64,000 nt of DNA from an uncultured bacterium. GTDB lineage: Bacteria; Verrucomicrobiota; Kiritimatiellia; RFP12; UBA1067. A program made the translations under genes and the position numbers. The stretch lies in assembly GCA_902779075.1 (NCBI GenBank), contig CACZAK010000004.1, positions 1-64,000 on the forward strand, in the 5' to 3' direction. The notes under the pieces are model-generated. The model had not been told where the DNA came from. It searched no databases and worked only from the letters and a program-made list of their open reading frames with translations. Positions 18,532 through 62,086 of this stretch are shown one piece after another (position 1 is the first letter of the stretch; every line of letters starts with the position of its first letter).

Positions 18532-20166
18532 TCAGAGGCCGTTTTGCTGGGCGATGAGGGTGTCAGCGCCGTACATCTTGCGGAGCTTCGGCTTTTCGAT
18601 CTTGCCCGTCGGGTTGCGCGGCACGGACGCGAAGATGATTTTGCGCGGACGCTTGTAGCGCGGGAGGTCGAGGCAGAATTCGTTCACTTCGTCTTCCGTG
18701 AGGGTCTGACCCTCCTTCACCTCGATGATCGCGGCGGCGATCTCGCCGAGACGCGCGTCCGCAAGGCCGATCACGGCCACGTCCTTGATGGCGGGGTGCG
18801 CGCGCAGAAAATCCTCGATCTGCACGGGGTAGAGGTTCTCGCCGCCGGTGATGATCACGTCCTTCGCGCGATCGACGAGGTAGATGAACCCGTCGCGCAT
18901 CTCGGCCATGTCGCCTGTGCGGAGCCAGCCGTCATCGGAAAGGATTTCCTTCGTCGCCTCGGGGTTCTTGTAGTAGCACTTGAGCACGCCCGGCCCCTTC
19001 ACGGCCAGCTCGCCGACTTCGCCGGGGTTCACCTCGCTGCCGTCGGGACGGATGATCTTCGCCTGCCAGCCGTAGCCGGGCACGCCGATCGCGCCCACGT
19101 GGTCGATGTTCTCGATGCCGAGATGGACGGCACCGGGACCGGTGGACTCCGAAAGGCCGTAGTTCGTATCGTAGTCGTGGTGCGGGAACACGGCCTTCCA
19201 GCGCTTGATGAGCGCGGGCGGCACGGGCTGCGCGCCGATGTGCATGAGACGCCACTGGTCGAGCTTGTAGTCGGAGAGCTTCACGTCGCCACGCTCGATG
19301 GCGTCGAGGATGTCCTGCGCCCACGGGACGAGCAACCACACGATCGTGCAGTGTTCCTCGCTCACGGCGCGGAGGATCCACTCGGGCTTCACGCCCTTGA
19401 GGAGAACGGACTTGCCGCCCACGAGGAAACTACCGAACCAGTGCATCTTCGCGCCCGTGTGGTAGAGCGGCGGAATGCAGAGGAAGGTGTCCTCCTTAGT
19501 CTGTCCGTGGTGGTTCTGCTCCACCTTGCAGGAGTGCATGAGGCAGTGGTGCTGGAGCACGATCGCCTTCGGGAAGCCCGTCGTGCCGGAGCTGAAGTAG
19601 ATGGCGGCCTCGTCATCGTCCGTAAGCGGGATGGCGGGCTGGCGCGACGAGCAGTAGCCCACGAGGTTGCGGTAGCTCTCGGCAAAGGTGGGGCAGTCGT
19701 CGCCCACATAGAGGCGCAGCTTCACTCGCGGCACGCGGTCTGCGATCTGCTCCACGCGCCCGATGAACTCGGGGCCGAACACGAGCACGTCGGCGTCCGC
19801 GAGCTGCAGACAGTACTTGATTTCGTCCGCCGTGTAGCGGAAGTTGAGCGGCACGGCGAGGCAGCCCGTGCGCAGCACGCCGAAGTAGATGGGCAGCCAC
19901 TCCAGGCAGTTCATCAGGAGGATGGCCACCTTGTCACCCTTCTTGAGTCCGCGCGAGAGGAGGAAGTTCGCGAAGCGGTTCGCCTTCTCGTCGAACTCGG
20001 ACCAGGTGATCTCGCTCCGGAACGCCTCCACGGGCGAGGATTCGATCAGGGAGTATTCGCGCCAGGTGGTGTTGCGCTTCTCCAGCTCCTGCGGGTTGAT
20101 TTCGACGAGCGCAACGTCATTCGGCCACTCCTTGGCGTTGCGGGCTAGTATTTCTGTTATTTGCAT
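18532..20166 (-). CDS. Acyl-CoA synthetase / AMP-dependent ligase
   Basis: The 544-residue protein carries the ANL signature YFSSGTTGFPKAI (P-loop), the motif YGLSESTG, GWLRTGDMAE with the adenylate-binding Asp, and near the C-terminus NPTGKIEKPKLRK with the catalytic Lys. It would activate a carboxylate, probably a medium- or long-chain fatty acid, to its CoA thioester in the cytoplasm. I take ATG 20166 as the start. TAAAAT ends exactly 7 bp before it and there is no Shine-Dalgarno sequence, so the transcript may be leaderless. The longer reading frame to 20202 would overlap the -35 region. Confidence 0.9.
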   Translation of the reverse strand: MQITEILARNAKEWPNDVALVEINPQELEKRNTTWREYSLIESSPVEAFRSEITWSEFDEKANRFANFLLSRGLKKGDKVAILLMNCLEWLPIYFGVLRTGCLAVPLNFRYTADEIKYCLQLADADVLVFGPEFIGRVEQIADRVPRVKLRLYVGDDCPTFAESYRNLVGYCSSRQPAIPLTDDDEAAIYFSSGTTGFPKAIVLQHHCLMHSCKVEQNHHGQTKEDTFLCIPPLYHTGAKMHWFGSFLVGGKSVLLKGVKPEWILRAVSEEHCTIVWLLVPWAQDILDAIERGDVKLSDYKLDQWRLMHIGAQPVPPALIKRWKAVFPHHDYDTNYGLSESTGPGAVHLGIENIDHVGAIGVPGYGWQAKIIRPDGSEVNPGEVGELAVKGPGVLKCYYKNPEATKEILSDDGWLRTGDMAEMRDGFIYLVDRAKDVIITGGENLYPVQIEDFLRAHPAIKDVAVIGLADARLGEIAAAIIEVKEGQTLTEDEVNEFCLDLPRYKRPRKIIFASVPRNPTGKIEKPKLRKMYGADTLIAQQNGL

Positions 20167-20173
20167 GGCGGGT

Positions 20174-20179
20174 ATTTTA
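20174..20179 (-). promoter_or_regulatory. -10 hexamer TAAAAT, 7 bp before the ligase ATG
   Basis: TAAAAT on the minus strand is followed by ACCCGCC and ATG. The position places the transcription start at or next to the start codon. No good -35 is visible (GTGACC at 20202-20197). Confidence 0.5.
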
Positions 20180-20225
20180 CCATATCCGCCGTAATCGGTC
20201 ACTTGACTTTTTTAGGCTTGTAGAT

Positions 20226-20437
20226 ATATCTCACGCAGAGGCGCAGAGAGGCAGAGCGCGCAGAGAAGATTCATCTTGCTTTCGCTATTGGGAGTCTTGG
20301 AGTTTGGGAGGTTGAGAGAAGGAGAAAGAGAGTTTTCAATATATTCTCCTTACCTCCGAGACTCCTAATCTCCAAATAGCGAAAGCAATCATCCTTCCTC
20401 TGCGCTCTCTGCCTCTCTGCGCCTCTGCGTGAGATAT
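20226..20437. repeat. Composite palindromic repeat R1 (complete copy)
   Basis: The outer arms are inverted repeats of about 38 bp: TCTCACGCAGAGGCGCAGAG... on the left and ...CTCTGCGCCTCTGCGTGAGA on the right. Nested inner arms are GCTTTCGCTATTGGGAGTC... and ...CAAATAGCGAAAGC. The whole unit can fold into one long branched hairpin. Related copies occur at 32225, 33081, 33301, 43903 and 58614. Confidence 0.9.
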
Positions 20438-20448
20438 CTTCCATCTAG

Positions 20449-21207
20449 CTATTTGCGGCGGTCGCGGGGCGACCGCCCTACCGGGTTTGCGAAGAGTTCA
20501 CGGAACTCCTCGCGCCTCAACAGCACAAACAGCCGCTCGGGATGGAACTGCACGCCCGCGACAGGCAAGTTGTCGCTCTCGATCGCCTCCACCACGCCGT
20601 CCGGCGCAAAGGCGACCGCGCGGAACCCCGGCGCGAGGTCCTTCACCGCCTGGTGGTGGCTCGTGTTGACCATCAGGTTCTCCGCGCGCAGGCTCTTCGC
20701 CAGACGTGACCCTTGCACGATCCGAATAGGATGAAGTTCTTTGCTGCGATGCGCAATCTCGCCCGGACGCTCCGAGGGAAGATCCTGCCACAGCGTACCG
20801 CCGAAATAGACGTTGATCACCTGGCAGCCCCGGCAGATGCCGAAGACGGGCAAGCGCCGCTTCACCGCCTCGTCGAGAAGCAGGAACTCCCAAGCGTCGC
20901 GGCGCAGGTTGACCTTCCCCAGACGCGGAGACGGCTTCGCCCTGTAGCGACGCGGCTCGACATCCTCGCCGCCGCAAAGCAGCAGCGCGTCAAGCGGCGC
21001 GAGCATACGCGCGACTAGCTCGCGGTCGGTCTCAGCCGGCAGCACGAGCGGCGTGTTTCCCGCCGCCGCGACGGCGGCGACGTACGTTGACTGCACATTG
21101 ACCGCGTTAGTCGTAGAGCACATGTCGGCGATGCCGACCACGAGCGGCGCAGCCCCCGACCAAAGGCAAACGGTTGCCACCAGTATTACAAACAGATGCT
21201 TTTTCAT
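20449..21207 (-). CDS. Class I glutamine amidotransferase-like peptidase C26 (PuuD-like)
   Basis: The 252-residue protein starts at ATG 21207, overlapping the upstream gene by 4 bp; its leader MKKHLFVILVATVCLWSG is a signal peptide, unusual for this mostly cytoplasmic family. The amidotransferase core has LLLCGGEDVEP, the nucleophile elbow FGICRGCQVINV (Cys), and AGVQFHPE with the His and Glu of the triad. PuuD-like enzymes hydrolyse gamma-glutamyl bonds such as gamma-glutamyl-GABA. An exported version may act on gamma-glutamyl peptides in the periplasm. The last residues (VGRSPRDRRK) come from a REP-like hairpin. Confidence 0.85.
   Translation of the reverse strand: MKKHLFVILVATVCLWSGAAPLVVGIADMCSTTNAVNVQSTYVAAVAAAGNTPLVLPAETDRELVARMLAPLDALLLCGGEDVEPRRYRAKPSPRLGKVNLRRDAWEFLLLDEAVKRRLPVFGICRGCQVINVYFGGTLWQDLPSERPGEIAHRSKELHPIRIVQGSRLAKSLRAENLMVNTSHHQAVKDLAPGFRAVAFAPDGVVEAIESDNLPVAGVQFHPERLFVLLRREEFRELFANPVGRSPRDRRK
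20455..20482. repeat. REP-like hairpin forming the end of the C26 gene
   Basis: GGCGGTCGC and GCGACCGCC form a 9-bp stem at the 3' end of the coding sequence, followed by ctacc. It encodes the last residues of the peptidase and may stabilise or end the transcript. Confidence 0.6.
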
Positions 21208-21476
21208 TCTGAGTCTTTCTTCGTTGTACGCGCGTCCACACGTCGGCGCTGGCGGAACCAGAGAAAGAGACAGATTGCCGCGTAGTAGAGCGCAACGCCG
21301 GCAAGGTAAAGCGTCCACTTGGCCGGCAAGTCGGTATATCCAACCTGATTCGACGCGGCGAAATCGACGCAGAACGACATCACGACGAGCACGAGCGCAG
21401 CGAGTGCGGCGAAGACGGCACGCCGACCGTAGCGCGGCGGCGTGCGTAGGGAGAGCGTCGGGGGCGAGCCGCTCAC
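21204..21476 (-). CDS. Small two-helix membrane protein
   Basis: The GTG at 21476 overlaps the stop of the pseudouridine synthase gene (GTGA) and lies after a GGGGG tract, so I prefer it to the TTG 15 bp earlier. The roughly 90-residue product has two hydrophobic helices (AVFAALAALVLVVMSFCV and WTLYLAGVALYYAAICLFLW) joined by a short polar loop, and a basic C-terminus. I do not recognise the family. Its stop overlaps the start of the exported amidotransferase, so the two may work together at the inner membrane. Confidence 0.7.
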   Translation of the reverse strand: MSGSPPTLSLRTPPRYGRRAVFAALAALVLVVMSFCVDFAASNQVGYTDLPAKWTLYLAGVALYYAAICLFLWFRQRRRVDARTTKKDSE

Positions 21477-22411
21477 TGGACATGCCCCCAATCAGGGTAC
21501 GGCGTGCGGATTTCCATCTCGTCATTAGAGATTGGATGACGGAACGATGCCGCAAGGGCGTGGAGACAATGTCCGACCTGGTTCTCCACGGCGAACGCGC
21601 CGTAGAGTCGGTCGTTCACGATGTGCATGCCGGCGAGGGCAAGTTGGGCGCGGATCTGGTGCGTGACGCCGGTGTAGATAGTCACTTCGAGAAGCGTGCG
21701 TTCCTCGTTGCCGCAGGAGGTCCGGGCGACGGGCGTGAACTGCGTGACGGCGTGGAGCAGTGCGGCCTTCACGCGGGCGCGCGCGCGACTGATGTCGATC
21801 ATGCGGCAGAACGGCAGCGTAGGATCGTGGACAAGGTCGTTCTCCAGCGTCCCGCCCACGGCCACGGAACCTTCGACAAGCGCGAGGTAGGTCTTCTTCA
21901 CCGTCTGCGCAGCGAACTGCGCTCGGAGCGCCTCGAAGGCTGCGGGCGTGCGCGCGACGAGGACGAGCCCCGAGGTGTCAGCGTCGATGCGGTGCAGCGC
22001 GCCGGCCATGAGCGGCTGGTCGCCCACGTCGCGCACGTCGGGCCAGCGGGCGACAACGCCGTTCATCAGCGTGCCGGTCTCGCGGTATGTGAGTGGCTGT
22101 ACGGGCTGGGCGGCCGGCTTGTCGAAGGCGAGCAGCGCAGCGTCCTCAAATACGCACCGCACGTGTACTGCTGGATTCGGAGCAACGCGGTTGTCGCTCG
22201 CTTCGGCGAGGCGGCGCACTTGGATGCGTTCGCCGCCTTGCAGCTTCTGTCCCTTGATGGCGGGGCGACCGTTCACCGAGACGTCCCCGTCCGCACAGGC
22301 CGCGCGGCAGAACGCGCGCGTGGAAGTGGGGAAACGGGACAACAAGGCGGCATCCAAACGGATGCCGCCTGTTTCCACGATGAAGTCTGCGTCCTCAATC
22401 ATGTGGATCAA
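21473..22411 (-). CDS. RluA-family 23S rRNA or tRNA pseudouridine synthase
   Basis: The 312-residue protein begins with an S4-like RNA-binding region (LDAALLSRF, VSVNGRPAIKG) and continues with the RluA catalytic domain. ALHRIDADTSGLVLVAR holds the catalytic Asp, followed by KKTYLALVEG and THQIRAQLALAGMHIVND. It converts specific uridines to pseudouridine. The start is either ATG 22411 or ATG 22402, both overlapping the upstream lipoprotein gene. It is the third gene of a five-gene overlapping operon, so it may be translated only by coupling. Confidence 0.9.
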   Translation of the reverse strand: MIHMIEDADFIVETGGIRLDAALLSRFPTSTRAFCRAACADGDVSVNGRPAIKGQKLQGGERIQVRRLAEASDNRVAPNPAVHVRCVFEDAALLAFDKPAAQPVQPLTYRETGTLMNGVVARWPDVRDVGDQPLMAGALHRIDADTSGLVLVARTPAAFEALRAQFAAQTVKKTYLALVEGSVAVGGTLENDLVHDPTLPFCRMIDISRARARVKAALLHAVTQFTPVARTSCGNEERTLLEVTIYTGVTHQIRAQLALAGMHIVNDRLYGAFAVENQVGHCLHALAASFRHPISNDEMEIRTPYPDWGHVQ

Positions 22412-22568
22412 TCATCTGTGCGGGCAACGGGCCGAGGCTCTCCCACGAGTGGTTCGTCGCCCACGGCAGGTCTGAGTCGGCAGCCGTATCCGCAATGCAT
22501 CCCGTCAAGCCGAACAGGACGAATGCGGCAAGCAGCGCCCACAGGAACTTAGTCGGTAATGACGGCAT
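22395..22568 (-). CDS. 57-residue lipoprotein, overlooked small gene
   Basis: An ATG at 22568 with an excellent GAGGAAGG ribosome site 2 bp upstream opens MPSLPTKFLWALLAAFVLFG followed by LTGC. This is a textbook lipoprotein signal peptide and lipobox. The mature peptide of about 34 residues reads IADTAADSDLPWATNHSWESL at its start (residues 25-45) and ends QMIDPHD. The Pro/Trp-rich short tail resembles small lipoproteins seen in Verrucomicrobia, but I cannot name a family. It overlaps the coiled-coil gene before it by 20 bp and the pseudouridine synthase after it by 8-17 bp. Confidence 0.75.
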   Translation of the reverse strand: MPSLPTKFLWALLAAFVLFGLTGCIADTAADSDLPWATNHSWESLGPLPAQMIDPHD

Positions 22569-23703: not shown

Positions 23704-23837
23704 GATGTTTTCTACCTTCTTTAGGACAGATTTTTGGGCCGCGCAAACCTAGTCCGCGCAGTCACGGTTGAATAGGATAATAGAAATCTGCGATAATGGC
23801 AACTGTAAAATGTAAAAAAGTTTTGGACGGGTCTGGA

Positions 23838-25337: not shown

Positions 25338-25357
25338 TTCTTTTCTCCTTTTCTAAA

Positions 25358-31501: not shown

Positions 31502-31532
31502 ATTATAACATACCTACCTGTAGGTATGTCAA
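31502..31532 (-). promoter_or_regulatory. Promoter with TetR operator for the efflux operon
   Basis: On the minus strand TTGACA (31532-31527) and TATAAT (31507-31502) are 19 bp apart. The spacer is filled by a perfect inverted repeat, half-site ACATACCTAC with a 2-bp centre (31508-31529). A TetR dimer bound there would block RNA polymerase. TATAAT is followed by ACTCGCC and the ATG. Confidence 0.85.
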
Positions 31533-31836
31533 TGGCAATTTGCAGTGTTTTTTGTGTTGGTTGGATTTCTCACGTAGAGACAGGGAACGCAGAGTGTGAT
31601 TGTTCACAAATGCCACCATTTCCACCTATAAGATAGCAGTACAGCCACCTTTCCACAATTGAGCCAATTGCAAAACCATGCGTGTACGGTGTGGCATGTA
31701 CGGCGAAAGACGAAGAACAACTTGCAGTTGGGTCTAGCCGTATGCATGCCTGTACTGGAAATTGTCACCCTCCTTAGGATACAGTTCTTTTTGACGCATG
31801 CAGTATGACATAGCAATGCTGTTCATCCAACAATTT

Positions 31837-31968
31837 GGTCTGACCTTTTAATATATATGGTCTGACCTTATTATGTAAAAGGTCTGACCTTATTATGTAA
31901 AAGGTCTGACCTTATTATGTAAATGGTCTGACCTTTTTACTTAAATGTTCTGACCAGAAATATTATTA
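31837..31968. repeat. Array of six 22-bp tandem repeats (iteron-like)
   Basis: Units start at 31837, 31859, 31881, 31903, 31925 and 31947, exactly 22 bp apart. Each begins GGTCTGACC (GTTCTGACC in the last), itself an odd palindrome, followed by an AT-only or AT-rich 13-bp tail such as TTATTATGTAAAA. A partial seventh unit starts at 31969. Two of the central units are identical. The spacing of two helical turns would put all cores on one face of the DNA, as in plasmid iterons or a regulator array. Confidence 0.95.
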
Positions 31969-33080: not shown

Positions 33081-33260
33081 GATGAACACTAGGATCCGTT
33101 GCAAAGCCTTTCTTGCTTTCGCTGCTGGGAGATTAGGAGTCTCGGTGTTGTGGAGAATATTACAAAATCTCCCAGTCTCCAAAACTCTGAAATTCCCAAT
33201 AGCGAAAGCAAGAAGGTTTTTCTCTGCGCTCTCTGTCTCTCAGCGCCTCTGCATGAGAAA
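33081..33260. repeat. Composite palindromic repeat R3
   Basis: From gatgaacactaggat it runs through GCTTTCGCTGCTGGGAGATT, the inverted CCCAATAGCGAAAGCAAG, and ends with CTCTGCGCTCTCTGTCTCTC and CTCTGCATGAGA. The left outer arm is missing. It is very similar to R6 at 58614. Confidence 0.85.
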
Positions 33261-33300
33261 CAACCCACCCTTCCACTCCGCACTATTCCGCATCCCATCC

Positions 33301-33466
33301 ATTACTTTCGCTGCTGGGAGATTTGGAGACTCGGAGATTAGGAGGTGTTATAATAATTTACTCTTAATCTTCCTCTCCTAATCTCCCAAACTTCTAATCT
33401 CACAATAGCGAAAGCAAAATCATTCCCCATCTCTACTTCCTGCCTCTCAGCACTTCTGCGTGAGAG
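33301..33466. repeat. Composite palindromic repeat R4
   Basis: It has inner arms CTTTCGCTGCTGGGAGATTT and CACAATAGCGAAAGCAAA, and a right outer arm ending CTTCTGCGTGAGAGA. A further truncated outer arm (cctctgtgtgagata) follows at 33478-33492, 30 bp before the mnmG promoter. Confidence 0.85.
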
Positions 33467-33523
33467 AATTAATCAACGCCTCTGTGTGAGATAATTAATC
33501 AACCACACTCAAACTAGTTTTGA

Positions 33524-33529
33524 TATAAT
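33524..33529 (+). promoter_or_regulatory. TATAAT 7 bp before the mnmG ATG
   Basis: TATAAT is followed by AAACGCC and ATG at 33537. No ribosome site and no obvious -35 are visible. The layout predicts a leaderless mRNA. Confidence 0.6.
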
Positions 33530-33536: not shown

Positions 33537-35858
33537 ATGCAAGCAAAGTATGATATAATCGTCGTAGGTGGAGGCCATGCAGGTGCGGAAGCCGCCCTCA
33601 TTGCCGCACGCATGGGTGTGCAAACCCTCCTCATCACCAGCCGCCTGGACTCAATTGCGCAAATGCCATGCAATCCCTCGATTGGCGGACTCGCCAAGAG
33701 CCACCTCGTTTTTGAACTCGATGCACTAGGCGGCGAAATGGGCTTCAACGCCGATCTGACTTCATTACAGGAAAAGACACTCAATACAAGTCGCGGACCC
33801 GCTGTCCAGGCCACCCGCGCACAATGCGACAAACGCGAATACACCCTCCGAATGCAACGTGTAATCGCCACACAGCCAATGCTGGATGTTCTTGAAGATG
33901 TAGTTGTTGAAGTCAAAGTTGAGGGTTCTTCTGATGAAAAAGAAGCACTCCAGACGCGTCATGTAATAGGTGTAGAGACCGCTGAACACGGTTATATTCC
34001 TACACGCAACATCATTCTTACCACCGGCACATCCCTCGGCGGTCGTATTTTCATCGGCAAAGAATCCATGCCATCAGGTGGAGATGGTCGCCCTGCAGTT
34101 GACCAGCTCAGCAACTCCCTACGCCAACTCGGATTTGCTCTTACTCGTCTCAAAACTGGCACTCCACCTCGACTTTCTGCACGGTCTATCGACTTCTCCA
34201 AAACCACTGAACAGCCTGGAGAAACGCACCCGTATTACTTTTCTCTCCGCACGCCAAACGCTATATCGTCGCCTTTTTCGCCGCATTTATACATAGATTT
34301 CAACACCCTTTCGTCGTGTGACGATACACATGTTTCCACGTGGAAACGTAATCTTTTCGACAAGGATGAGCCAAGCCAACGTTCCATAGGATATCAGAAG
34401 GGAGATGAATACCGCGATTTTATAGGCTTAGGTAGGATTATACCTATAAAGCAACCTAGTTCACGCAATGGGTTTAGCCAAGGCCACTCTATGTTGCCAT
34501 CTACTAGTTCGACGGAATCAGCAAATACCTTGAACCAATTGCAAAGCTTATTGGATGAAGATTTTGTCCATGTAGAACAGGTAGAACATCCAGAACATAC
34601 TGATGCTTTGCATGTTCTACATGGACAATCAAAAGAGGTTTTGCAGCCGGACTCGTTTTCTGTTTCCACGTGGAAACATAATCTGTTTTCAACAGAACAC
34701 TATGCTCCGTGGCCTGTGAATGCACCATGTGTAAGTTGTTTTGCTACGCATACAACTCCGCAAACACATGAAATAATCCGAACCCATCTACAGGATAGTG
34801 CACTGTACGGAGGGGCAATTGTGGGAACTGGTGTGCGGTACTGCCCGTCGATCGAGGACAAGATTGTCCGCTTTCCAGCAGCTGAAAGCCACCATGTAAT
34901 GCTGGAACCAGAAGACCTTGCTGGGACAATCATTTATCCCAACGGTCTCTCAAACAGTTTGCCGAAAGAAGTGCAAGAGCAACTTGTCCATTCTGTACCA
35001 GGTCTCGAGCATGCCGAGTTCCTTGCCTACGCATACGCAATCGAATATGACGGAATCGACGCCCGTGAACTGTCGCACACACTTGAGTCTAAGAGAATAG
35101 GCGGGTTGTACTTTGCAGGACAAATCAACGGAACGACCGGGTATGAGGAAGCCGCCGCGCAGGGAATCATGGCGGGAATAAACGCAGCATTCTCCGTGCT
35201 AGGCAAAGATCCTCTTATTCTAAGCAGACAGGATGCCTACATTGGAGTCCTGATTGACGACCTTGTCACGAAGGGTACTGATGAGCCATACCGGATGTTT
35301 ACAAGCCGAGCCGAACGTCGGCTCATTCTCCGACAAGACAATGCACGTTTCCGTCTGATGCACGCCGCAGACCGCATCGGAGTTTTGCCATGTGACATTC
35401 GCCAAAAGACGCACCATATTCATTCCAGCATTGAGGAACTTGAGAATGGTTCCGCGAACAAGTTGAGAATTGAGGGGAAGCCTTTGACATCGCATTTGAA
35501 TCTCTGCCAGTCACTTGACATGGCCCACGAGTTTGTCAGTAGTCACATAAAGGATTTCCCGTTCAGTCAGGATGACGCCTTGTCCATCATCGAACAACTC
35601 TGGATCAGGCACCATTACGCAGGATACATCAGGCAAGAAGAGATTGCGGCCGCGCGAGCAAAAAAAGACGAAACAATCCGTATCCCCGCTTGGCTGGATT
35701 ATGACGCATGTGTTGCCGTGCGCTTTGAAAGCCGCGAGAAACTCAAGAAGTTTCGACCAGAGACTCTCGCACAGGCAGCGCGAATTCCCGGTGTCAATCC
35801 AGCGGACATTGCCGTACTTGCCATCATAATCAAACGGGGACATATAAAACGTCAATGA
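33537..35858 (+). CDS. mnmG: tRNA uridine-5-carboxymethylaminomethyl modification enzyme MnmG, with large insertion
   Basis: The protein has the FAD-binding [12 protein letters not shown] at its start, [17 protein letters not shown], the long MnmG helix region, [13 protein letters not shown] and, near the end, [14 protein letters not shown]. MnmG with MnmE modifies the wobble uridine of several tRNAs. At 773 residues it is about 150 longer than usual. The extra block lies between [10 protein letters not shown] and [16 protein letters not shown], roughly residues 235-395, inside the FAD/NADH-binding region. It is low in complexity and carries the repeated VSTWKRN and VSTWKHN encoded by two parS-like palindromes. 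No rsmG, parA or parB follows here. Confidence 0.95.
34332..34347. promoter_or_regulatory. parS-like palindrome 1, inside mnmG
   Basis: GTTTCCACGTGGAAAC is a perfect 16-bp palindrome followed by gtaatctttt. It resembles the ParB site parS (TGTTTCACGTGAAACA) with one extra base pair in each half. It encodes VSTWK within the MnmG insertion. Confidence 0.5.
34564..34628. repeat. Inverted repeat in the mnmG insertion
   Basis: TTGTCCATGTAGAACA (34564-34579) and its exact reverse complement (34613-34628) face each other across 33 bp. Each arm resembles a decayed parS-like half region (compare TTTCCACGTGGAAAC). Confidence 0.75.
34661..34678. promoter_or_regulatory. parS-like palindrome 2, inside mnmG
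   Basis: TGTTTCCACGTGGAAACA is a perfect 18-bp palindrome, followed by taatctgttt as at the first site. Both copies keep VSTWK in the same reading frame. Confidence 0.55.
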
Positions 35859-35884: not shown

Positions 35885-35913
35885 TTGCAGTGAACGGCTA
35901 AAAGAGGTATACT
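35885..35913 (+). promoter_or_regulatory. Promoter with leaderless layout for the EIIA-CBS gene
   Basis: TTGCAG (35885-35890) and TATACT (35908-35913) are 17 bp apart. AACTGGC and the GTG start codon at 35921 follow directly. Confidence 0.65.
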
Positions 35914-41907: not shown

Positions 41908-43227
41908 ATGAGACTGTGGACGGATAGCTCCTATCCGATCGTTCTGTCTTGCGCTAACTGCCTTGCCCCCTGGGTGAAGCGCGAGGTATGCGAACTTGGA
42001 TACAAGATAATAGACGAAGCGGACAACATCGTAGTCGTGAAGGGGGCGATGCGCGACGTACTGCGGCTTAACCTGCGCCTGCGCACCGCCCACAGGGTGC
42101 TTGTGCCTTTGTTGCGCGCACGCTGTAGGCACATACGCGAATTGTATAGTCTAGTAGCGTCGATCGATTGGGAGAACTTGATTGAAACGGAATCCTATTT
42201 TTCCGTATTCTCAGTCGTCAACAACAACACTATACGTGATACGCGCCTTCCGTCGCTGGTGACGAAAGACGCAATCGTTGACCGCATTCGCGACAGATGC
42301 GGAAGCCGTCCCGATTCAGGTTCCGACTATGACCGTGGCGCAGCCGTGTTCCTGCATTGGGAACGCGACAGGATGATCATATACCTTGATACAAGCGGAG
42401 CACCTCTTTGCAAGCGCGGGTACCGTAAGATACCGGGATCCGCGCCAATGCAGGAGACTCTTGCCGCAGCCTGCATCGACGCTCTCCACTGGGATCGGAA
42501 AACACCGTTCATTTCCCCTATGTGCGGAAGCGGTACACCGGCCATTGAAGCCGCGCTCGCTGCTATGAACCGCGCACCTGGATCACTGCGCGCACATTTC
42601 GGTTTTATGTCCATTAAAGGATATAAGCTCATGATCGAAGGGGAGAAGGCACCGCGCATTGCGCCTCGTCAACGTTTCGGAGCCACGCCAGAGCAGATTT
42701 GGAAGGAAATGCTGCTGGAAGCGCAGGAACAGGAGAAGACGGAAGGTCTTCCACCGATAATTGCCACGGACATCTCTCCCGAGGCGATTGAAAACGCCAA
42801 GACCAATGCCTATATCGCTGGTGTTTCAAAGTTCATCCAGTTCAAGGCGTGCGACTTCGGCGATACCCCGATTCCTCCTTCACAAACTTCAGAACCCTTT
42901 GTGTCATTCTCCATAACGGGAAAAGAGGGATACAAGGCCCGTGGCTGCGTGTTCTTCAATCCCGAATATGGAATACGCCTTGGTGATCCGGCCGAACTCG
43001 CCCCCATCTATGAACGTATCGGAACATTCATGAACGAGAAGTGCCCCGGTTATACTGGCGGCGTGTTGACGGGTAGCCCTGAACTCTCAAAAATGATCAA
43101 TTTGTTCTATGTAACGCGAATTCCGTTCTACAATGGACCAATTGACTGCCGTCTATTCGTATTTCCGGGTTGTGAAATCAAGGGCGCTGAGTTATCAACT
43201 GAATTATCACCTAGTGTTGATAAGTAA
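41908..43227 (+). CDS. THUMP-domain RNA methyltransferase (RlmL/TrmN type)
   Basis: AAGAAGG precedes ATG 41908. The 439-residue protein has a THUMP-like RNA-binding front (to about residue 160) and a Rossmann methyltransferase with PMCGSGTPAIEAAL (SAM site), ATDISPEAIENAKTNA and VFFNPEYGIRLGD, where NPEYG replaces the usual NPPYG of N2-guanine methyltransferases. It probably methylates a guanine in 23S rRNA or tRNA. It follows dnaN by 31 bp, so it may share that transcript. Confidence 0.85.
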   Translation: MRLWTDSSYPIVLSCANCLAPWVKREVCELGYKIIDEADNIVVVKGAMRDVLRLNLRLRTAHRVLVPLLRARCRHIRELYSLVASIDWENLIETESYFSVFSVVNNNTIRDTRLPSLVTKDAIVDRIRDRCGSRPDSGSDYDRGAAVFLHWERDRMIIYLDTSGAPLCKRGYRKIPGSAPMQETLAAACIDALHWDRKTPFISPMCGSGTPAIEAALAAMNRAPGSLRAHFGFMSIKGYKLMIEGEKAPRIAPRQRFGATPEQIWKEMLLEAQEQEKTEGLPPIIATDISPEAIENAKTNAYIAGVSKFIQFKACDFGDTPIPPSQTSEPFVSFSITGKEGYKARGCVFFNPEYGIRLGDPAELAPIYERIGTFMNEKCPGYTGGVLTGSPELSKMINLFYVTRIPFYNGPIDCRLFVFPGCEIKGAELSTELSPSVDK

Positions 43228-43298
43228 GTAATAAACACACTTATTATAACCTGTTTATAACTTGAGTTGTTGATAAAGCTGTTGATAATTGTTGATAA
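43192..43298. promoter_or_regulatory. Cluster of DnaA-box-like sites
   Basis: TGTTGATAA occurs at 43215, 43268, 43280 and 43290. TTATCAACT lies at 43192, TTATCACCT at 43204 and TGTTTATAA at 43252. The last three perfect boxes share orientation and are spaced 12 and 10 bp, about one helical turn. This is the densest box cluster in the window. It lies in the gap before the XRE regulator. Confidence 0.65.
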
Positions 43299-43345
43299 TA
43301 TCCGTCTTGTCAAGACGCCCTGAAAAGAGCATACTATTCGCCGTC

Positions 43346-43902: not shown

Positions 43903-44150
43903 TTGAACCTAAAATCCTCGGTCGAAAGTCTCACGCAGAGGTGCAGAGAGGCGGAGAACGCAGAGCAAGTTCAGAAATCCAACGGAAAAGAAAACCATGA
44001 CAAGAATCATCTCGGGAAGTTTTTTCATCCAAATGGCGAAAATAAATACATACTCAAGCAAAAGGGATAACCTCTGCGAACTCTGCCTCTCCGCGCCTCT
44101 GCGTGAGATATAAGATGGAGCGGAAATCAAAATGAGAATTTTAGGTTGAA
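43903..44150. repeat. Composite palindromic repeat R5
   Basis: Outermost arms TTGAACCTAAAAT and ATTTTAGGTTGAA bracket the unit. Inside are TCTCACGCAGAGGTGCAGAG and CGCCTCTGCGTGAGATA. The central inner arms are replaced or strongly decayed. The unit fills the gap between the regulator and the sugar transporter. Confidence 0.8.
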
Positions 44151-44161: not shown

Positions 44162-45430
44162 ATGAAAAAGATGAACTTGCGGTGGATAGTCTGTGCAGTT
44201 TCGCTGGGCGGGCTTCTGTTCGGCTTCGATGCAGGAGTGATTTCTGGCTGCGAGGAGGCGATTCAAAACGAGTTCAAGCTCGCGCCGTTCTGGCACGGAC
44301 TTGTCGTGGCTGGCGCGTTGATCGGCACAGTGTTCGGCGCGTTGGCGGCGGGAAGAATGTGCGACCGGTTCGGACGCAAACCGACGCTTGTCTGGATGGG
44401 CGTGCTGTTTTTGATTTCGGCTGCCGGATGCGCGGTGACGCCGGGCGGCGCGATTGGTCCGCACGTCCTCGGCTGGATGCGTTTCATCGGCGGCATCGCC
44501 ATCGGAGGAGTGTCGGTAGCCGTGCCGATGTACATTGCCGAGATAGCGCCGCCGGAGAGTCGCGGACGTCTCGTGCTCGTCAACCAGTTCTGCATTGTGC
44601 TGGGTATCGTCGTATCGTACATCTCCAACTACTGCGTGGCGCGGTGGGTACCAGCGTCCGCATCCGTGGTATGGCGTGCGATGCTCGGCGCGGAGTGCAT
44701 TCCGGTCGTGATGTATCTGGCGGCGCTTATGCCGGTGCCGGAAAGTCCGATGTGGTTGGCGGCGCGCGGGGGGAAGGTCGAAATACATCCAGCATCTGCG
44801 CCGCTGTTCGTACGGCGTAATCTGAGGCCGATTCTCCTTTGCTTCACGGTGGCGTTCTTCAGCCAGCTGTCGGGCGTGAACGCGGTGAACTTCTACTCGC
44901 CGCGTATCTTCAAGATGATCTTCGGCGAAGGGAGCGAACTCGTGTCGCTCGCGGGTACGATCGGCGTTGGGGTGGTGAACCTCGTGTTCACCGTGGCGGC
45001 GTTCTTCCTCATCGACAGGTTCGGGCGACGTCCGCTGCTCATTTCCGGCTGCGCGTTGATGGCGGCGATGCACGGACTCGTCGCGTGGCAGGTTTCGCTG
45101 GGCGACGCCTGCACGCCGTGGCTGGCGATGCTTGGCGTGTACGGCTTCATCGCGTCGGTGGCGTTCTCGGCAAGCGCCGTGATCTGGGTGTTCATCTCTG
45201 AGATTTTCCCGCCGGACGTGCGGGCGAAGGGACAGAGCTTCGGCGGCATGGTTCACTGGATAATGTGCATGCTCGTCTCGTGGCTTTTCCCGGTTGCGGC
45301 CGAGCGCACTGGAACTTGGGCTTTTGCGTTCTTCGCCGTTATGATGTTGATTGAAATGGTATGGGCCATCTTCGTCATGCCAGAAACGAAAGGCCGCCAC
45401 ATAGACGAAGACCATAAATTTATGGTATAA
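44162..45430 (+). CDS. MFS sugar-porter family transporter
   Basis: AAAGG precedes ATG 44162. The 422-residue protein has twelve predicted helices and the sugar-porter signatures LLFGFDAGVISG, CDRFGRKP, VPMYIAEIAPPESRGRL, PESPMWLA, DRFGRRPLL and the closing PETKGRHIDE. The central cytoplasmic loop is shorter than usual. It would import a hexose, pentose or polyol with H+ or Na+. It is followed by a DUF1080 protein, a common partner in sugar use in this group. Confidence 0.92.
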   Translation: MKKMNLRWIVCAVSLGGLLFGFDAGVISGCEEAIQNEFKLAPFWHGLVVAGALIGTVFGALAAGRMCDRFGRKPTLVWMGVLFLISAAGCAVTPGGAIGPHVLGWMRFIGGIAIGGVSVAVPMYIAEIAPPESRGRLVLVNQFCIVLGIVVSYISNYCVARWVPASASVVWRAMLGAECIPVVMYLAALMPVPESPMWLAARGGKVEIHPASAPLFVRRNLRPILLCFTVAFFSQLSGVNAVNFYSPRIFKMIFGEGSELVSLAGTIGVGVVNLVFTVAAFFLIDRFGRRPLLISGCALMAAMHGLVAWQVSLGDACTPWLAMLGVYGFIASVAFSASAVIWVFISEIFPPDVRAKGQSFGGMVHWIMCMLVSWLFPVAAERTGTWAFAFFAVMMLIEMVWAIFVMPETKGRHIDEDHKFMV

Positions 45431-45431
45431 T
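45426..45431 (+). promoter_or_regulatory. TATAAT 7 bp before the DUF1080 ATG
   Basis: TATAAT is followed by CTTCGCC and ATG 45439. The hexamer overlaps the stop codon of the transporter gene (TAA 45428-45430). TAGACG at 45402 is a weak -35 candidate. Confidence 0.55.
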
Positions 45432-54432: not shown

Positions 54433-54438
54433 TATAAT
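54433..54438 (+). promoter_or_regulatory. TATAAT 7 bp before the rnhC ATG
   Basis: TATAAT is followed by AGCCGAC and ATG 54446. No ribosome site or clear -35 is present. Confidence 0.55.
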
Positions 54439-55537: not shown

Positions 55538-55579
55538 AGAAGAGAAGAAAAGAAAGCGAAAAAGAGAAAGTGAATAAAA

Positions 55580-56718: not shown

Positions 56719-56733
56719 CGGGGACTTCAGGCG

Positions 56734-57624: not shown

Positions 57625-57645
57625 CGACGGCGAAGGCAAGGTAAC

Positions 57646-58578: not shown

Positions 58579-58613
58579 GCAGATCTGTTGCCGCTCAAAA
58601 CTAACAGCAACCA

Positions 58614-58800
58614 GTTGCAAAGCCTTTTTTGCTTTCGCTGTTGGGAGATTAGGAGTCTCGGAGTTTAGGAGAATATTACAAATACTCCCAGCCTCCAAAA
58701 CTCTGAAACTCCCAATAGCGAAAGCAAGGAGGTTTTACTCTGCGCTCTCTGCTTCTCTGCGTCTCTGCGTGAGACTATCGTTTAGTGTCCAATTTATTTA
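58614..58800. repeat. Composite palindromic repeat R6
   Basis: The unit runs from gttgcaaagcc through GCTTTCGCTGTTGGGAGATT, CCCAATAGCGAAAGCAAG and CTCTGCGTCTCTGCGTGAGA to tttagtgtccaatttattta. The right end is the mirror of the left end of R2. It fills the gap between the convergent FrhB and glycosyltransferase genes. Confidence 0.88.
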
Positions 58801-58814
58801 GAGCAATGACTTAG

Positions 58815-59888
58815 TCAGCGGCGTAGCCTGAACGGTGCGAATAGCGTCCAGACTATTGAGTATACGCATCCCGCGCCGAGTACGCGCACTGCCAGCACCG
58901 CGAGCGCCAGCACCGGCTTTCGCCACGAGAGCGGAAACGCGCGCAACGCCGCACGCACTTCTGGGTCCGAAGCGTATTCGCGCACGATTCTTAGTCCCTC
59001 GCTCCAACCTATACGCAGGTTGCGAAGCAAGGCAAACATCTCCAGCAGCGCCAGCACGCACGACGCCGCATAAAGACACCCAAGCGATCCACCCTCCCGC
59101 TCGTTGAGAGCCTGTCGGACCCGCAGGAGCGTCAACTTGTTCTTGAACACGCGCAAGGCCCTGTTCCTGTTCGCAATCAGGCCGCCCGCGTGAAGCACAT
59201 AGTTGTATACGGGTTCAGGACGGCATGTCGTTTTCTGTGCCCGCAGGAGATAGTCACAGTTGAACAGCGCGTCCTCATAGAGAACAATGCTTTCGTCGAA
59301 ACGCACGTGATGCCGTTCAATCAGCGCACGGCGGTAGACACAGCGGCATACGCTCCCCAGCTCGCGGTTGTCGAAAAGCGGCGTTCCCCCATACCATCGG
59401 CGCACGTGTTCCATTGAAAAGCCGATGAAGCGCGGTATGAAGCGCGCGCGGATGTCGGCGGGGGTGTCGCAATGATAATCGGCACGTAGAGGCTCTTCGC
59501 GCGATCTCGATGCGTCGAATTCCGTGATGCGCATTGGGAATATGCAGAGGTCAGCGCCCGTGGCGGACATTTCGTTGACGCCCAGTGACAGGAATTCGGG
59601 CTCAAACGTGTCGTCACCGTCCAGAAAAAAAACGTATTCGCCCCGCGCAACGTCAAGTCCGCCATTGCGCGCGCCCGAGAGACCGCGATTAGACTGATGC
59701 ACCACGCGCACGCGCTCGTCCGCCGCCGCCAACCGTTCCAGTATAGTCCCTGTACTGTCCGTCGAGCCGTCATCCACGGCGATGACCTCGAAATCGGGAT
59801 ACGTGCTGCGGAGGACGCTGTTCACAGCGTCCTCAACCCATTTTTCCACGTTCCAGCATGGAATAATCACGCTCGCCTTGGGGGCCAT
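58815..59888 (-). CDS. Family 2 glycosyltransferase
   Basis: The 357-residue protein has a GT-A fold: ASVIIPCWNVEKWVEDAVNS, FEVIAVDDGSTDSTG, GLSGARNGGLDVARGEYVFF, and the metal-binding LDGDD, followed by a C-terminal part with hydrophobic helices (KPVLALAVLAVRVLG). It adds a sugar from a nucleotide donor, likely for surface polysaccharide. No ribosome site precedes ATG 59888; TATACT lies 7 bp upstream. It is divergent from another family 2 glycosyltransferase. Confidence 0.92.
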   Translation of the reverse strand: MAPKASVIIPCWNVEKWVEDAVNSVLRSTYPDFEVIAVDDGSTDSTGTILERLAAADERVRVVHQSNRGLSGARNGGLDVARGEYVFFLDGDDTFEPEFLSLGVNEMSATGADLCIFPMRITEFDASRSREEPLRADYHCDTPADIRARFIPRFIGFSMEHVRRWYGGTPLFDNRELGSVCRCVYRRALIERHHVRFDESIVLYEDALFNCDYLLRAQKTTCRPEPVYNYVLHAGGLIANRNRALRVFKNKLTLLRVRQALNEREGGSLGCLYAASCVLALLEMFALLRNLRIGWSEGLRIVREYASDPEVRAALRAFPLSWRKPVLALAVLAVRVLGAGCVYSIVWTLFAPFRLRR

Positions 59889-59895
59889 GCCGTAC

Positions 59896-59941
59896 AGTAT
59901 ATCATCATCCCGTTGTCCGCGCGAACACTTTGTGGTATAAT
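59896..59941. promoter_or_regulatory. Back-to-back leaderless promoters for two glycosyltransferases
   Basis: Minus strand: TATACT (59901-59896), GTACGGC, ATG 59888. Plus strand: TTGTCC (59913-59918), 17 bp, TATAAT (59936-59941), CTCAAGC, ATG 59949. Both -10 hexamers lie exactly 7 bp from their start codons. Confidence 0.7.
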
Positions 59942-59948
59942 CTCAAGC

Positions 59949-60944
59949 ATGGAACGTCCTCTAGTCTCTTTCTGCCTGCTGTTCTACAACCATCGGCGTT
60001 GGTTCGGCGCCGCGCTGGAGGCCGCGTTCGCGCAGACGTACCGTCCGCTCGAGATCGTAATCTCCGACGACGCCTCGACGGATGGCTCGCCGGAACTCAT
60101 CCAAGACTACGTCGCCGCCCATGCACCACCCGACGTCACCGTGATCTTCAACCGCAATGAGAAAAATCTCGGCATCCTCGCAAATTGGCTGAAGACCGCC
60201 TCGCTATCGCACGGAGAGTTGATCATCATGGCCGGGGGCGACGACATCTCTCTCTCGGAACGCACGGAAAAAATCGTCTCGGCGTGGCTGGCCGATGGCA
60301 AGCGTGCCGTCGTCATCAGCCATGCGGGATACCGGATCGACTCCAAAGGACGTTCGCTCGGGCCCCTGCCCGCCCCGTCCACGAAGCAACCCCTCGGTGC
60401 CTTGATGGCCTGGCGCCGCGATTGCTACACGGCGTTTCCACCCGAACCGGTCAGCCCCAGATGCGTTGAAGACGTTCCATTTGCAAAACGCGCGCTCGTG
60501 CTCGGCGGCGACGAACTCGTCATTCCCGATCGCCTTGTCAAATATCGCCTCGGTTCCGGCCTCACCTCTACGCTTCATCATCACCGTACGCCGGTGATTA
60601 AAAGTTGGCGGTTACTCCTTTCAGGCCTCGATCAAGCAGAATACGACCTCGCCGCCATTGCCGATAGGTTGCTCCCCGAACGCGTGGAGGCGTTCCGCAA
60701 GGCTTTCGCACGTGAACGCGTCTTTGCGGAGAACCACCTTACACTTGTTGAATCGCCGTCATTTCGCGCAAGATGGAGGGCACTCCGCAAGGAGCGCATG
60801 ATGGGGTACTGGAATTCTCGAGTCTTTATGTACGCCTACCTGTTGCCGCGGCGGATCGGCGACTGGGTGCTTGACGCCATCACCCGCCTCAACCAGCTCC
60901 GCCGCCGCCTTTCACGGGAGGGCCGCGCTTGTCGCGGCCAATGA
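59949..60944 (+). CDS. Family 2 glycosyltransferase
   Basis: The 331-residue protein begins MERPLVSFCLLFYNHRRWFG and has the nucleotide-sugar pocket LEIVISDDASTDGS and the metal site IMAGGDDISLSERT. It is probably part of surface polysaccharide assembly with the divergent glycosyltransferase and the UDP-galactopyranose mutase. I chose ATG 59949, placed 7 bp after TATAAT; the frame is open further upstream but overlaps the divergent gene. The last ten residues (SREGRACRGQ) come from one copy of a duplicated hairpin. Confidence 0.9.
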   Translation: MERPLVSFCLLFYNHRRWFGAALEAAFAQTYRPLEIVISDDASTDGSPELIQDYVAAHAPPDVTVIFNRNEKNLGILANWLKTASLSHGELIIMAGGDDISLSERTEKIVSAWLADGKRAVVISHAGYRIDSKGRSLGPLPAPSTKQPLGALMAWRRDCYTAFPPEPVSPRCVEDVPFAKRALVLGGDELVIPDRLVKYRLGSGLTSTLHHHRTPVIKSWRLLLSGLDQAEYDLAAIADRLLPERVEAFRKAFARERVFAENHLTLVESPSFRARWRALRKERMMGYWNSRVFMYAYLLPRRIGDWVLDAITRLNQLRRRLSREGRACRGQ

Positions 60945-60977
60945 CATCACGGGAGGGCCGCGCTTGTCGCGGCCAAT
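60912..60977. repeat. Duplicated REP-like hairpin at convergent gene ends
   Basis: A 31-bp unit (TCACGGGAGGGCCGCGCTTG...) lies at 60912-60942 and 60947-60977. GGCCGCG and CGCGGCC form the stem. The first copy supplies the end of the glycosyltransferase gene and the second the end of the mutase gene on the other strand. It may be a bidirectional terminator. Confidence 0.85.
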
Positions 60978-62074
60978 AGAGCCCGGCCAATCGACTGATC
61001 CATGTCGTAATACTTGTACTCGCCGAGGCGTCCGCCAACGATTAGGTTGGGGCATTTAGCGGCTTCGGCCTGGTAGAGCGCGAGCTTTTCCCGCGAGGCT
61101 GGCGTATCGACGGGATAGTACGGTTCGTCACCCGGCGCCCACGTCTTCGGATACTCGCGGCAGATGATCGTGGCGGGATGCGCCATTACGTCCTTCTGCT
61201 CTGGATGGTAGTGCTTGAACTCGTGGATGCGCGTGAACGGCACGTCCGCGTCCGTGTAGTTCACCACGCTTGTCCCCTGCCAGTCCGCCACGGCCAAGCG
61301 CTCCGTCTCGAAGCGAAGCGAACGCCAGGGGAGCGGACCGTACTTGTAGCCGAATAGCGCGTCGATGGGACCGGAGTAGAACACGGGAACGTCCAACTTG
61401 TTCGTCTTGCGCCATTCAAGCCAATCGACGTTGCATTCGATCGTGATGTTCGGGTGGTCGAGGAGACGGTCGAAGAGGGAGTTGTAGCCCGTGAGGGGAA
61501 TGCCCTGACGGTAGTCGGAGTAGTAGTTGATGTCGTAGCTCGCGCGCACGGGGAGGCGCTTGATGATCGACGCCGGGAGGTCTTTCGGATCCATGCCCCA
61601 CTGCTTGCGCGTGTACTCGCGGATGAAGGCTTCGTAAAGCGGACGCCCGATGAAGGATATGGCCTGTTCCTCGAAGTTAGCCGGTTCCGGCGCGTTACCT
61701 GCTTCTTTCGCGATGAAGGCGGGCAACTCGGACGGCGTGAGGTTGAGTCCGTAGAACTGGTTGACTAGGGTGAGGCCGAGCGGAAGGAAATACGTCTTGC
61801 CCGCGTGGCGGGCAAGGACCTTGTGCTGGTAGCCGTTAAACGTTATGAAGCGGTTCACGAACTCCCACACGTCATCGAGGTGCGTGTGGAAAATATGCGA
61901 GCCGTAGGTATGGACCTCGATGCCGGTTTCGGCGTCGGTCTCGCACCGCACGTTGCCGCCTGGGGCCGCACGGCGCTCGAGAACGAGCACTTTGCGCCCT
62001 TTTTCTGCCAATACGCGGGCTACCGTGCATCCCCAGATGCCAGCCCCTGCCACAATTACGTTAGTTTCTTGCAT
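60947..62074 (-). CDS. glf: UDP-galactopyranose mutase
   Basis: The 375-residue protein has the FAD-binding VIVAGAGIWGCTVARVLAEK, APGGNVRC and THTYGSHIFHT-type HTYGSHIFHT region, YTRKQWGMDPKDLP, and GGRLGEYKYYDMDQSIGRAL at the end. It converts UDP-galactopyranose to UDP-galactofuranose for surface glycans. I chose ATG 62074; TATACT ends 6 bp upstream and there is no ribosome site. A GTG at 62080 would directly follow the hexamer. Confidence 0.96.
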   Translation of the reverse strand: MQETNVIVAGAGIWGCTVARVLAEKGRKVLVLERRAAPGGNVRCETDAETGIEVHTYGSHIFHTHLDDVWEFVNRFITFNGYQHKVLARHAGKTYFLPLGLTLVNQFYGLNLTPSELPAFIAKEAGNAPEPANFEEQAISFIGRPLYEAFIREYTRKQWGMDPKDLPASIIKRLPVRASYDINYYSDYRQGIPLTGYNSLFDRLLDHPNITIECNVDWLEWRKTNKLDVPVFYSGPIDALFGYKYGPLPWRSLRFETERLAVADWQGTSVVNYTDADVPFTRIHEFKHYHPEQKDVMAHPATIICREYPKTWAPGDEPYYPVDTPASREKLALYQAEAAKCPNLIVGGRLGEYKYYDMDQSIGRALLAATSAALP

Positions 62075-62080
62075 GGACAC

Positions 62081-62086
62081 AGTATA
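62081..62086 (-). promoter_or_regulatory. TATACT 6 bp before the glf ATG
   Basis: On the minus strand TATACT is followed by GTGTCC and ATG 62074. No ribosome site and no good -35 are visible. Confidence 0.5.

What the first reader, a model, noticed from the sequence alone, without database searches (positions are those of the whole stretch)
20164..62086. A class of genes with the -10 box exactly 7 bp before the start codon and no ribosome site
Ten genes share one layout. Exactly 7 bp between the hexamer and the start: acyl-CoA ligase (TAAAAT, ATG 20166), tetR (TATAAT, ATG 31494), mnmG (TATAAT, 33537), EIIA-CBS (TATACT, GTG 35921), DUF1080 (TATAAT, 45439), rnhC (TATAAT, 54446) and both divergent glycosyltransferases (TATACT, 59888; TATAAT, 59949). 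glf has 6 bp (TATACT, 62074) and the XRE gene 8 bp (TACTAT, 43346). The 7-mers often end in CGCC or GGC. None has a Shine-Dalgarno sequence, whereas operon-internal and other genes do (dnaN, dnaA, the beta-helix gene). A -10 box at that distance puts transcription start on the start codon, so these mRNAs should be leaderless. The regularity suggests a genome-wide mode of first-gene expression in this lineage.
Basis: partly seen in the sequence, partly recalled or inferred. Interest (0 to 1): 0.85.

Follow-up and report, generated by a model that had tools for sequence, protein, structure and literature searches.

The report
Start-codon promoters in gut Kiritimatiellae bacteria
In one group of gut bacteria some genes have their promoter so close to the start codon that the messenger RNA should begin at the start codon itself, a known way to start a gene for which I found no earlier report in this group.

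Summary
The layout is real: ten places read as described, nine with a strong -10 box, eight exactly 7 bp before the start where shuffles give 0.14. The lineage is Kiritimatiellae. The window's own assembly is not held, so whole-genome tests used relatives. Exact TATAAT-N7-ATG exceeds other spacings 6.4-fold in the nearest genus (14 of 14 genomes sampled); the excess is significant in 73 of 144 genomes of the order, 0 of 66 in the rest of the class, 1 of 191 in the rest of the phylum. Base -1 is C in 81% of such genes against 32% of others. At rnhC the box persists while flanks diverge. Leadered promoters form a second mode, mostly with a Shine-Dalgarno sequence. These are most likely leaderless genes, but a minority (about 3-6% of genes, 23 of 262 first genes in the nearest genome), so 'mode of first-gene expression' is too strong. 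The kind is known from Deinococcus-Thermus, Actinobacteria and Akkermansia. No RNA was seen. Side finding: parS-like sites inside mnmG in 30 of 32 near loci.

The parts
20174..20179 (-). -10 box TAAAAT (TGG before it), 7 bp before ATG 20166 of an AMP-binding (acyl-CoA ligase) gene
31502..31507 (-). -10 box TATAAT, 7 bp before ATG 31494 of a TetR gene; -35-like TTGACA at 31527-31532
31509..31528 (.). 9-bp perfect inverted repeat CATACCTAC-AG-GTAGGTATG between -35 and -10 of tetR: likely its own operator (inference)
   Evidence: read from the sequence
33524..33529 (+). -10 box TATAAT, 7 bp before ATG 33537 of mnmG; box at 6-10 bp in 7 of 10 near mnmG loci
35908..35913 (+). -10 box TATACT, 7 bp before GTG 35921 of a PTS EIIA-CBS gene; the only strong box here without TG before it
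43332..43337 (+). weak -10-like TACTAT, 8 bp before ATG 43346 of an XRE (HTH_3) gene; least certain member
45426..45431 (+). -10 box TATAAT with TGG before it, 7 bp before ATG 45439 of a DUF1080 / 3-keto-disaccharide hydrolase gene
54433..54438 (+). -10 box TATAAT with TGG before it, 7 bp before ATG 54446 of an RNase HII/HIII gene; box at 6-11 bp in 14 of 20 orthologues fetched
59896..59901 (-). -10 box TATACT, 7 bp before ATG 59888 of a glycosyltransferase 2 gene
59936..59941 (+). -10 box TATAAT with TGG before it, 7 bp before ATG 59949 of the divergent glycosyltransferase 2 gene; both promoters fit in 60 bp
62081..62086 (-). -10 box TATACT with TGG before it, 6 bp before ATG 62074 of glf (UDP-galactopyranose mutase)
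5952..5957 (+). contrast: TATACT box 21 bp before ATG 5979 of the beta-helix gene, with AAGGAG between (ordinary leadered layout)

Best explanation
These genes have sigma-70-type extended -10 promoters (mostly TNTGN-TATAAT) placed so that the transcription start falls on the first base of the start codon. RNA polymerase would start at the A or G of the codon, 7-8 bases after the hexamer, guided by the C before it (pyrimidine at -1, purine at +1). The mRNA would have no leader, and the ribosome (70S, or 30S with initiator tRNA) would bind the 5'-terminal AUG/GUG directly. Downstream genes and leadered genes of the same genomes go on using Shine-Dalgarno sequences. Shown: the spacing, its excess over chance, its lineage distribution, its conservation at two genes and the C at -1. 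Inferred: the start site, the leaderless mRNA and its translation.
For: Window: 8 boxes at exactly 7 bp against 0.14 expected. Whole genomes: exact TATAAT-N7-ATG 96 in G001 against 119/9 = 13.2 per spacing for N11-19 and 6 for the reversed pattern; fold 6.4 over 14 genomes of genus g1; 73 of 144 genomes of the order significant, 0 of 66 and 1 of 191 outside it. Two modes of distance for TGN-TATA[AC]T boxes with a gene within 400 bp: in G039 8 of 21 at 6-7 bp, 0 at 8-15, 13 at 16-60; in G017 4 of 12 at 6-8, 0 at 9-15, 8 beyond; in G001 19 of 66 at 6-10, 1 at 11-15, 39 beyond, 7 at 0-4. -1 is C in 81% of 59 genes with a strong box at 6-9 bp against 32% of 788 others, 40% of 15 with the reversed hexamer and 32% of 315 with other A/T-rich hexamers; for the TGN boxes 8 of 8 at 6 bp and 17 of 19 at 7 bp. 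Leadered promoters: 29 of 40 with the start 16-50 bp after the box have an SD of 4 or more bases between. rnhC: 14 of 20 orthologues have the box at 6-11 bp, nine at 7, two at 6. mnmG: 7 of 10 near loci at 6-10 bp, 0 of 18 farther ones. First genes 23 of 262 against 7 of 213 operon-internal genes in G001.
Against: No RNA 5' end was available. The lack of SD adds little, because other A/T-rich hexamers in that place lower it too. Seven operon-internal genes of G001 also carry such a box, about what background gives. Spacings 9-11 occur (mnmG, rnhC), which would leave 1-4 bases of leader, so 'exactly 7' is a mode and not a rule. Four of the seven G001 boxes at 0-4 bp have no ATG at 6-10 bp in the frame and stay unexplained. 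Six of 20 rnhC orthologues, three of them in the same genus, have no box in range. In leadered promoters the conserved C sits at +6 (65 of 83), so the preferred start may be one base nearer the box than N7 assumes.
Confidence: 0.87

Rival explanations
1. The boxes are promoters but the starts are wrong: translation begins at a later start codon with a Shine-Dalgarno sequence, so the mRNAs have ordinary leaders.
For: Five of ten genes (EIIA-CBS, rnhC, GT-, glf, XRE) have some in-frame start with an SD-like match of 4-5 bases within 40 codons.
Against: In mnmG, both glycosyltransferases and glf a conserved domain begins at residue 3-8, so a later start would cut the fold; the other five genes have no such alternative. 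The distance peak at 7 bp with C at -1 would have no reason.
Confidence: 0.05
2. Near-leaderless rather than leaderless: transcription starts 1-4 bases before the codon, leaving a leader too short for an SD.
For: N9-N11 spacings in some mnmG and rnhC orthologues; conserved C at +6 in leadered promoters.
Against: The mode is 7, and the C stays next to the start codon at spacing 6 (8 of 8) and 7 (17 of 19) alike.
Confidence: 0.06
3. Chance: A/T-rich upstream DNA gives TANNNT near starts.
For: Loose TANNNT at 6-8 bp with automatic starts is only modest in the window (5 against 1.27; 3 of 400 shuffles reach it).
Against: Strong boxes at 7 bp: 0 of 400 shuffles; whole-genome excess against other spacings in the same genomes.
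Confidence: 0.01
4. The motif is a dispersed repeat or a regulator site that happens to end at start codons, not a core promoter.
For: A shared extended motif TNTGN-TATAAT and a GC-rich spacer.
Against: By eye the flanks differ between genes; the motif is the textbook extended -10 (recalled), and the same motif stands before leadered genes, most with SD.
Confidence: 0.01

Closest known systems
Leaderless genes with TANNNT about 12 bp upstream of the start, counted from its first T (Zheng et al. 2011, PMC3160421; passages and section 7 read)
   Same: -10 box adjacent to the start, found by an upstream scan; only the proximal gene of an operon can be leaderless, distal genes need SD.
   Different: Their list of groups with leaderless genes (207 of 953 bacterial genomes) names no Verrucomicrobia, Lentisphaerae, Planctomycetes or Chlamydiae (none of these words in the text). 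Actinobacteria have about 20% and Deinococcus-Thermus about 40% there; here about 3-6% of genes.
'-10 region adjacent to ORFs' of Deinococcus-Thermus (Zhong et al. 2025, PMC12340547; passages read)
   Same: -10 motif mostly 6-7 bp before the ORF, leaderless mRNA, conserved between species, tested there with reporters.
   Different: Nearly one third of D. radiodurans genes and TACACT most frequent; here a minority of genes and an extended TGN-TATAAT-type box in eight of nine in the window. They also scanned the whole bacterial domain; whether Kiritimatiellae were in that set was not seen.
Leaderless TSS in Akkermansia muciniphila by Cappable-seq (Ettwiller et al. 2016, PMC4782308; passages read)
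   Same: Experimental: 10% of high-confidence TSS at annotated starts, in the same phylum in the GTDB sense (recalled).
   Different: Other class (recalled); no -10-to-start distance rule was seen in the passages read.
Leaderless transcripts of Mycobacterium (PMC3898074, PMC4633059; search listing with abstract starts only)
   Same: Large leaderless class beside an SD class.
   Different: Actinobacteria; not compared in detail here.

Membership tests
Bacterial leaderless genes with ORF-adjacent -10 box | -10 hexamer about 6-8 bp before the start codon, in excess of chance | tested here: met
Bacterial leaderless genes with ORF-adjacent -10 box | No Shine-Dalgarno sequence before these starts, though the genome uses SD | tested here: met
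   8% of 59 against 62% of 788; partly forced, since the reversed hexamer gives 0 of 15. Exact 16S end with CCTCC found in 1 of 5 genomes of the order searched (G026); the others lack the pattern, as drafts often do
Bacterial leaderless genes with ORF-adjacent -10 box | Found at first or single genes rather than inside operons | tested here: met
   first against internal: G001 23 of 262 and 7 of 213; G017 5 of 36 and 0 of 38; G039 7 of 66 and 0 of 58; window (automatic starts) 5 of 15 and 1 of 21
Bacterial leaderless genes with ORF-adjacent -10 box | Pyrimidine at -1 and purine at +1 fitting a start at the codon | tested here: met
   C at -1 in 81% against 32%; 8 of 8 at N6 and 17 of 19 at N7
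Bacterial leaderless genes with ORF-adjacent -10 box | Mapped 5' end at the start codon | not testable with these tools
   no RNA data held
Bacterial leaderless genes with ORF-adjacent -10 box | The leaderless mRNA is translated | not testable with these tools
   needs ribosome profiling or N-terminal proteomics
Leaderless use tied to a reduced ribosomal protein S1 (considered) | S1 shortened or lost where leaderless genes are common | tested here: not met
   31 of 40 relatives have a match over the rpsA cut-off, nearly full length in rich (G002, G017) and poor (G018, G020, G037, G040) genomes alike; the other nine (G001 among them) have only partial or weaker matches in draft assemblies

The most novel reading that the evidence does not exclude
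ORF-adjacent extended -10 promoters are a discrete trait of one order of gut Kiritimatiellae, gained within it or kept there and lost again genus by genus, while the rest of the class uses leaders. Genera with and without the trait share SD use and full-length S1, so the order would be a natural experiment for how leaderless expression is gained and lost, separate from the Actinobacteria and Deinococcus cases.
Probability: 0.5. Interest if true: 0.5.

Novelty: new member of a known kind. Interest (0 to 1): 0.4.

Why it matters
Leaderless genes are usually discussed for archaea, Actinobacteria and Deinococcus-Thermus. A lineage-limited case in a gut group known mainly from MAGs widens the list and gives close relatives that differ in the trait. 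In practice it helps gene calling: a start codon 7 bp after TATAAT with C at -1 is a strong start signal in these genomes, where an SD-based caller might move the start.

Tried and rejected
Chance and base composition: rejected by shuffles and by other spacings in the same genomes. SD absence as independent evidence: mostly withdrawn after the reversed-hexamer and A/T-rich controls. A link with a shortened ribosomal protein S1: not found. Gene-based distance profiles (27 genomes and the window) were too small to place the lineage limit outside G001, so whole-genome pattern counts were used; six of the 33 genomes fetched (G008, G090, G093, G100, G117, G120) gave under about 9 kb each and were dropped. 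The reversed-pattern control is poorer than other spacings, so N11-19 was preferred. Only exact TATAAT with ATG was counted over whole genomes; other hexamers, GTG and other spacings were seen only in the samples, so a lineage with another -10 consensus could be missed. Outside the order the fold is 1.27 (class, 66 genomes) and 1.19 (phylum, 191), with two class genomes (G236, G270) at p < 1e-3. Group g62 of the phylum (SD-poor, 55% GC in the one genome sampled, G107) may be Akkermansia; not checked, and nothing rests on it.

My gene finder is simple (coding score only). Its start choice is imperfect, so several candidate starts per gene were allowed, which raises the background too (36 strong hits at 6-9 bp against about 5 per position at 11-30 bp, that is about 21 for four positions). 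In one search, 15 G001 boxes inside genes and 15 with no gene within 400 bp were not counted in the 66. In one search, four of 120 boxes (5 or 10-15 bp from a start) were left out of both classes. In one search genes with a start less than 80 bases from an edge were dropped.

Literature: the searches listed no paper on leaderless genes or promoters in Kiritimatiellae. Only listings were seen, some cut (20 of 23 papers, 20 of 5,890, 8 of 54), in an open-access library. The one paper with both words (PMC10783764; passages and section 16 read) gives Kiritimatiellae 63% SD use; the passages give no leaderless count for it.
Full report
What was checked. The window (64 kb, 59% GC) comes from a bacterium whose assembly is not held; the nearest genome held, G001, shares 33% of sampled 31-mers. 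The mnmG protein points to the lineage: the best match (95%) is an 'uncultured Lentisphaerae' MAG, and 11 of the 20 best loci are titled Kiritimatiellae or Kiritimatiellia, most of those from rumen or other gut parts of ruminants. The contig of the best match has the same length (79,843) as contig C6 of G014, a genome of the nearest genus. That the whole order is a gut lineage is inference.

Observation. All ten spacers end in C. Eight of the nine strong boxes carry TG one base before the hexamer (read). XRE is doubtful.

Genome scale. In 16 genomes of the genus the exact pattern TATAAT-N7-ATG occurs 28 to 96 times against 0 to 6 for the reversed pattern. Set against the mean of spacings 11-19, the excess is 6.4-fold in the 14 genus genomes of the order sample, 4.4-fold in genus g6 (52 genomes, 45 significant), 7.1 in g2 and 7.5 in g172 (two genomes each), 3.2 in f3 g11 (17 genomes, 5 significant), but near or below 1 in g5, g174, f2 and f5. 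Over all: 73 of 144 genomes of the order at p < 1e-4, 0 of 66 in the rest of the class, 1 of 191 in the rest of the phylum (G185; 21 against 60/9). So the trait is concentrated in one order and patchy inside it. The test assumes equal background at each spacing; real leadered starts at 11-19 would make it conservative.

How common. In about 798 kb of G001 (573 genes) strong boxes peak at 7 bp (15, with 10 at 6, 3 at 8, 8 at 9 and 9 at 10; about 5 per position at 11-30). 35 of 567 genes have one at 6-9 bp, 23 of 262 first genes and 7 of 213 internal genes, before background is taken off. Of extended -10 boxes with a gene within 400 bp, 19 of 66 lie at 6-10 bp, 1 at 11-15 and 39 farther; of seven more at 0-4, three have an in-frame ATG at 6, 7 or 10 bp and four do not. 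In G039, of another family, 8 of 21 lie at 6-7, none at 8-15, 13 at 16-60; in G017 4 of 12 at 6-8, none at 9-15. The gap is what two classes predict: no leader, or a leader long enough for an SD (29 of 40 leadered promoters have one).

Why the start site is probably the start codon. The base before the codon is C in 81% of 59 genes against 32% of 788 others, and in 40% of 15 and 32% of 315 control genes. Among TGN boxes it is C in 8 of 8 at spacing 6 and 17 of 19 at spacing 7, so the C moves with the codon. C at -1 and a purine at +1 fits the YR motif that PMC4782308 reports at -1/+1 in all species it analysed (passages read). The SD comparison (8% against 62%) is weaker evidence because the reversed hexamer also gives 0 of 15.

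Conservation. Of 20 rnhC orthologues fetched (from 39 of 40 genomes with a match), 14 have TATA[AC]T at 6-11 bp: nine at 7, two at 6, one at 10, two at 11; six have none in range. Within the genus it is 12 of 15. In the window and ten of these with the box at 6-7 bp, mean pairwise identity is 0.73 in TNTGN-TATAAT and 0.66 in the spacer, but 0.43 and 0.32 in the two stretches above. These ten were chosen for having the box, and three pairs among the eleven are near-identical, so the figures illustrate rather than test. Before mnmG the box lies at 6-10 bp in 7 of 10 near loci and in 0 of 18 of the farther loci examined (one has TAGAAT at 12 bp of a doubtful start); 28 of the 80 loci were used.

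Mechanism. An ordinary sigma-70-type extended -10 promoter whose +1 is the first base of the start codon; leaderless initiation would then follow known biology (IF2 and initiator tRNA dependence as summarised in PMC10783764, passages read). In tetR a perfect 9-bp inverted repeat lies between -35 and -10, fitting autorepression (inference). The two divergent glycosyltransferases show how compact a control region this allows: 60 bp hold both promoters.

What is known. The same design is published for Deinococcus-Thermus (-10 motif 6-7 bp before the ORF, nearly a third of D. radiodurans genes; PMC12340547, passages) and predicted for many bacteria (PMC3160421, section 7; its list names no PVC group). 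In the same broad group 10% of mapped TSS in Akkermansia muciniphila are leaderless (PMC4782308, passages). Hence a new member of a known kind; new, as far as my searches show, are the lineage, its limits and the strict spacing with C at -1.

A side finding worth its own look. mnmG of the window holds two palindromes TTTCCACGTGGAAA at 34333 and 34663 (expected 0.00), in an in-frame insert of variable length (nine proteins aligned). In 30 of the 32 nearest mnmG loci (L031-L062; 16 titled Kiritimatiellae, Kiritimatiellia, Kiritimatiellaeota or Pontiella/-ceae, the rest Verrucomicrobia, Lentisphaerae, PVC or unnamed) parS-like sites (at most 2 mismatches, or the window's variant) lie inside the match; 23 of the 32 have at least one exact TGTTCCACGTGGAACA, and up to four occur per gene. 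L045 has two after the match and L041 begins inside the gene. 0 of 8 other loci checked (L063-L070, six titled Akkermansia or Akkermansiaceae) have any; L071-L110 were not checked. The window's genus has a longer variant, and L048 a matching change on both arms three times. This looks like chromosomal centromere sites kept inside a tRNA-modification gene; the parS consensus is recalled, and ParB was not examined. A literature search showed nothing on it in the ten of 37 listings seen.

Noticed in passing
34333-34346 and 34663-34676 (inside mnmG); L031-L062: parS-like palindromes inside the mnmG ORF, in an in-frame insert; 30 of 32 near mnmG loci carry parS-like sites in the gene, 23 with an exact TGTTCCACGTGGAACA, 0 of 8 others checked. 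The window's genus has the variant TGTTTCCACGTGGAAAC. A matching change in ParB would be the test.
   Followed up: partly
43215-43298: Four TTATCAACA (DnaA-box-like, label recalled) close together after dnaA-dnaN-rlmL, near the minimum of cumulative GC skew (40-44 kb): likely oriC, about 9 kb from the parS-like sites.
   Followed up: partly
31836-31955: 22-bp tandem array, 5.5 copies of TGGTCTGACCTTATTATGTAAA, between tetR and mnmG.
   Followed up: no
20225-20437, 33100-33470, 43929-44112: Dispersed intergenic element with inverted ends (TCTCACGCAGAGGCGCAGAG ... TAGCGAAAGCAA), REP- or MITE-like.
   Followed up: no
59889-59948: 60 bp between two start codons hold two divergent start-codon promoters.
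   Followed up: partly
window, G001 (L111-L130, L213-L232), G017 (L145-L147, L243-L252), G039 (L233-L242): In promoters with a leader or no gene near, the sixth base after the TGN-TATA[AC]T box is C in 65 of 83, one base nearer the box than in N7 genes; may tell the preferred start site.
   Followed up: no
G185 (phylum, family f58): The only one of 191 genomes outside the class with a TATAAT-N7-ATG excess at p < 1e-4 (21 against 6.7 per spacing): a possible second origin.
   Followed up: no
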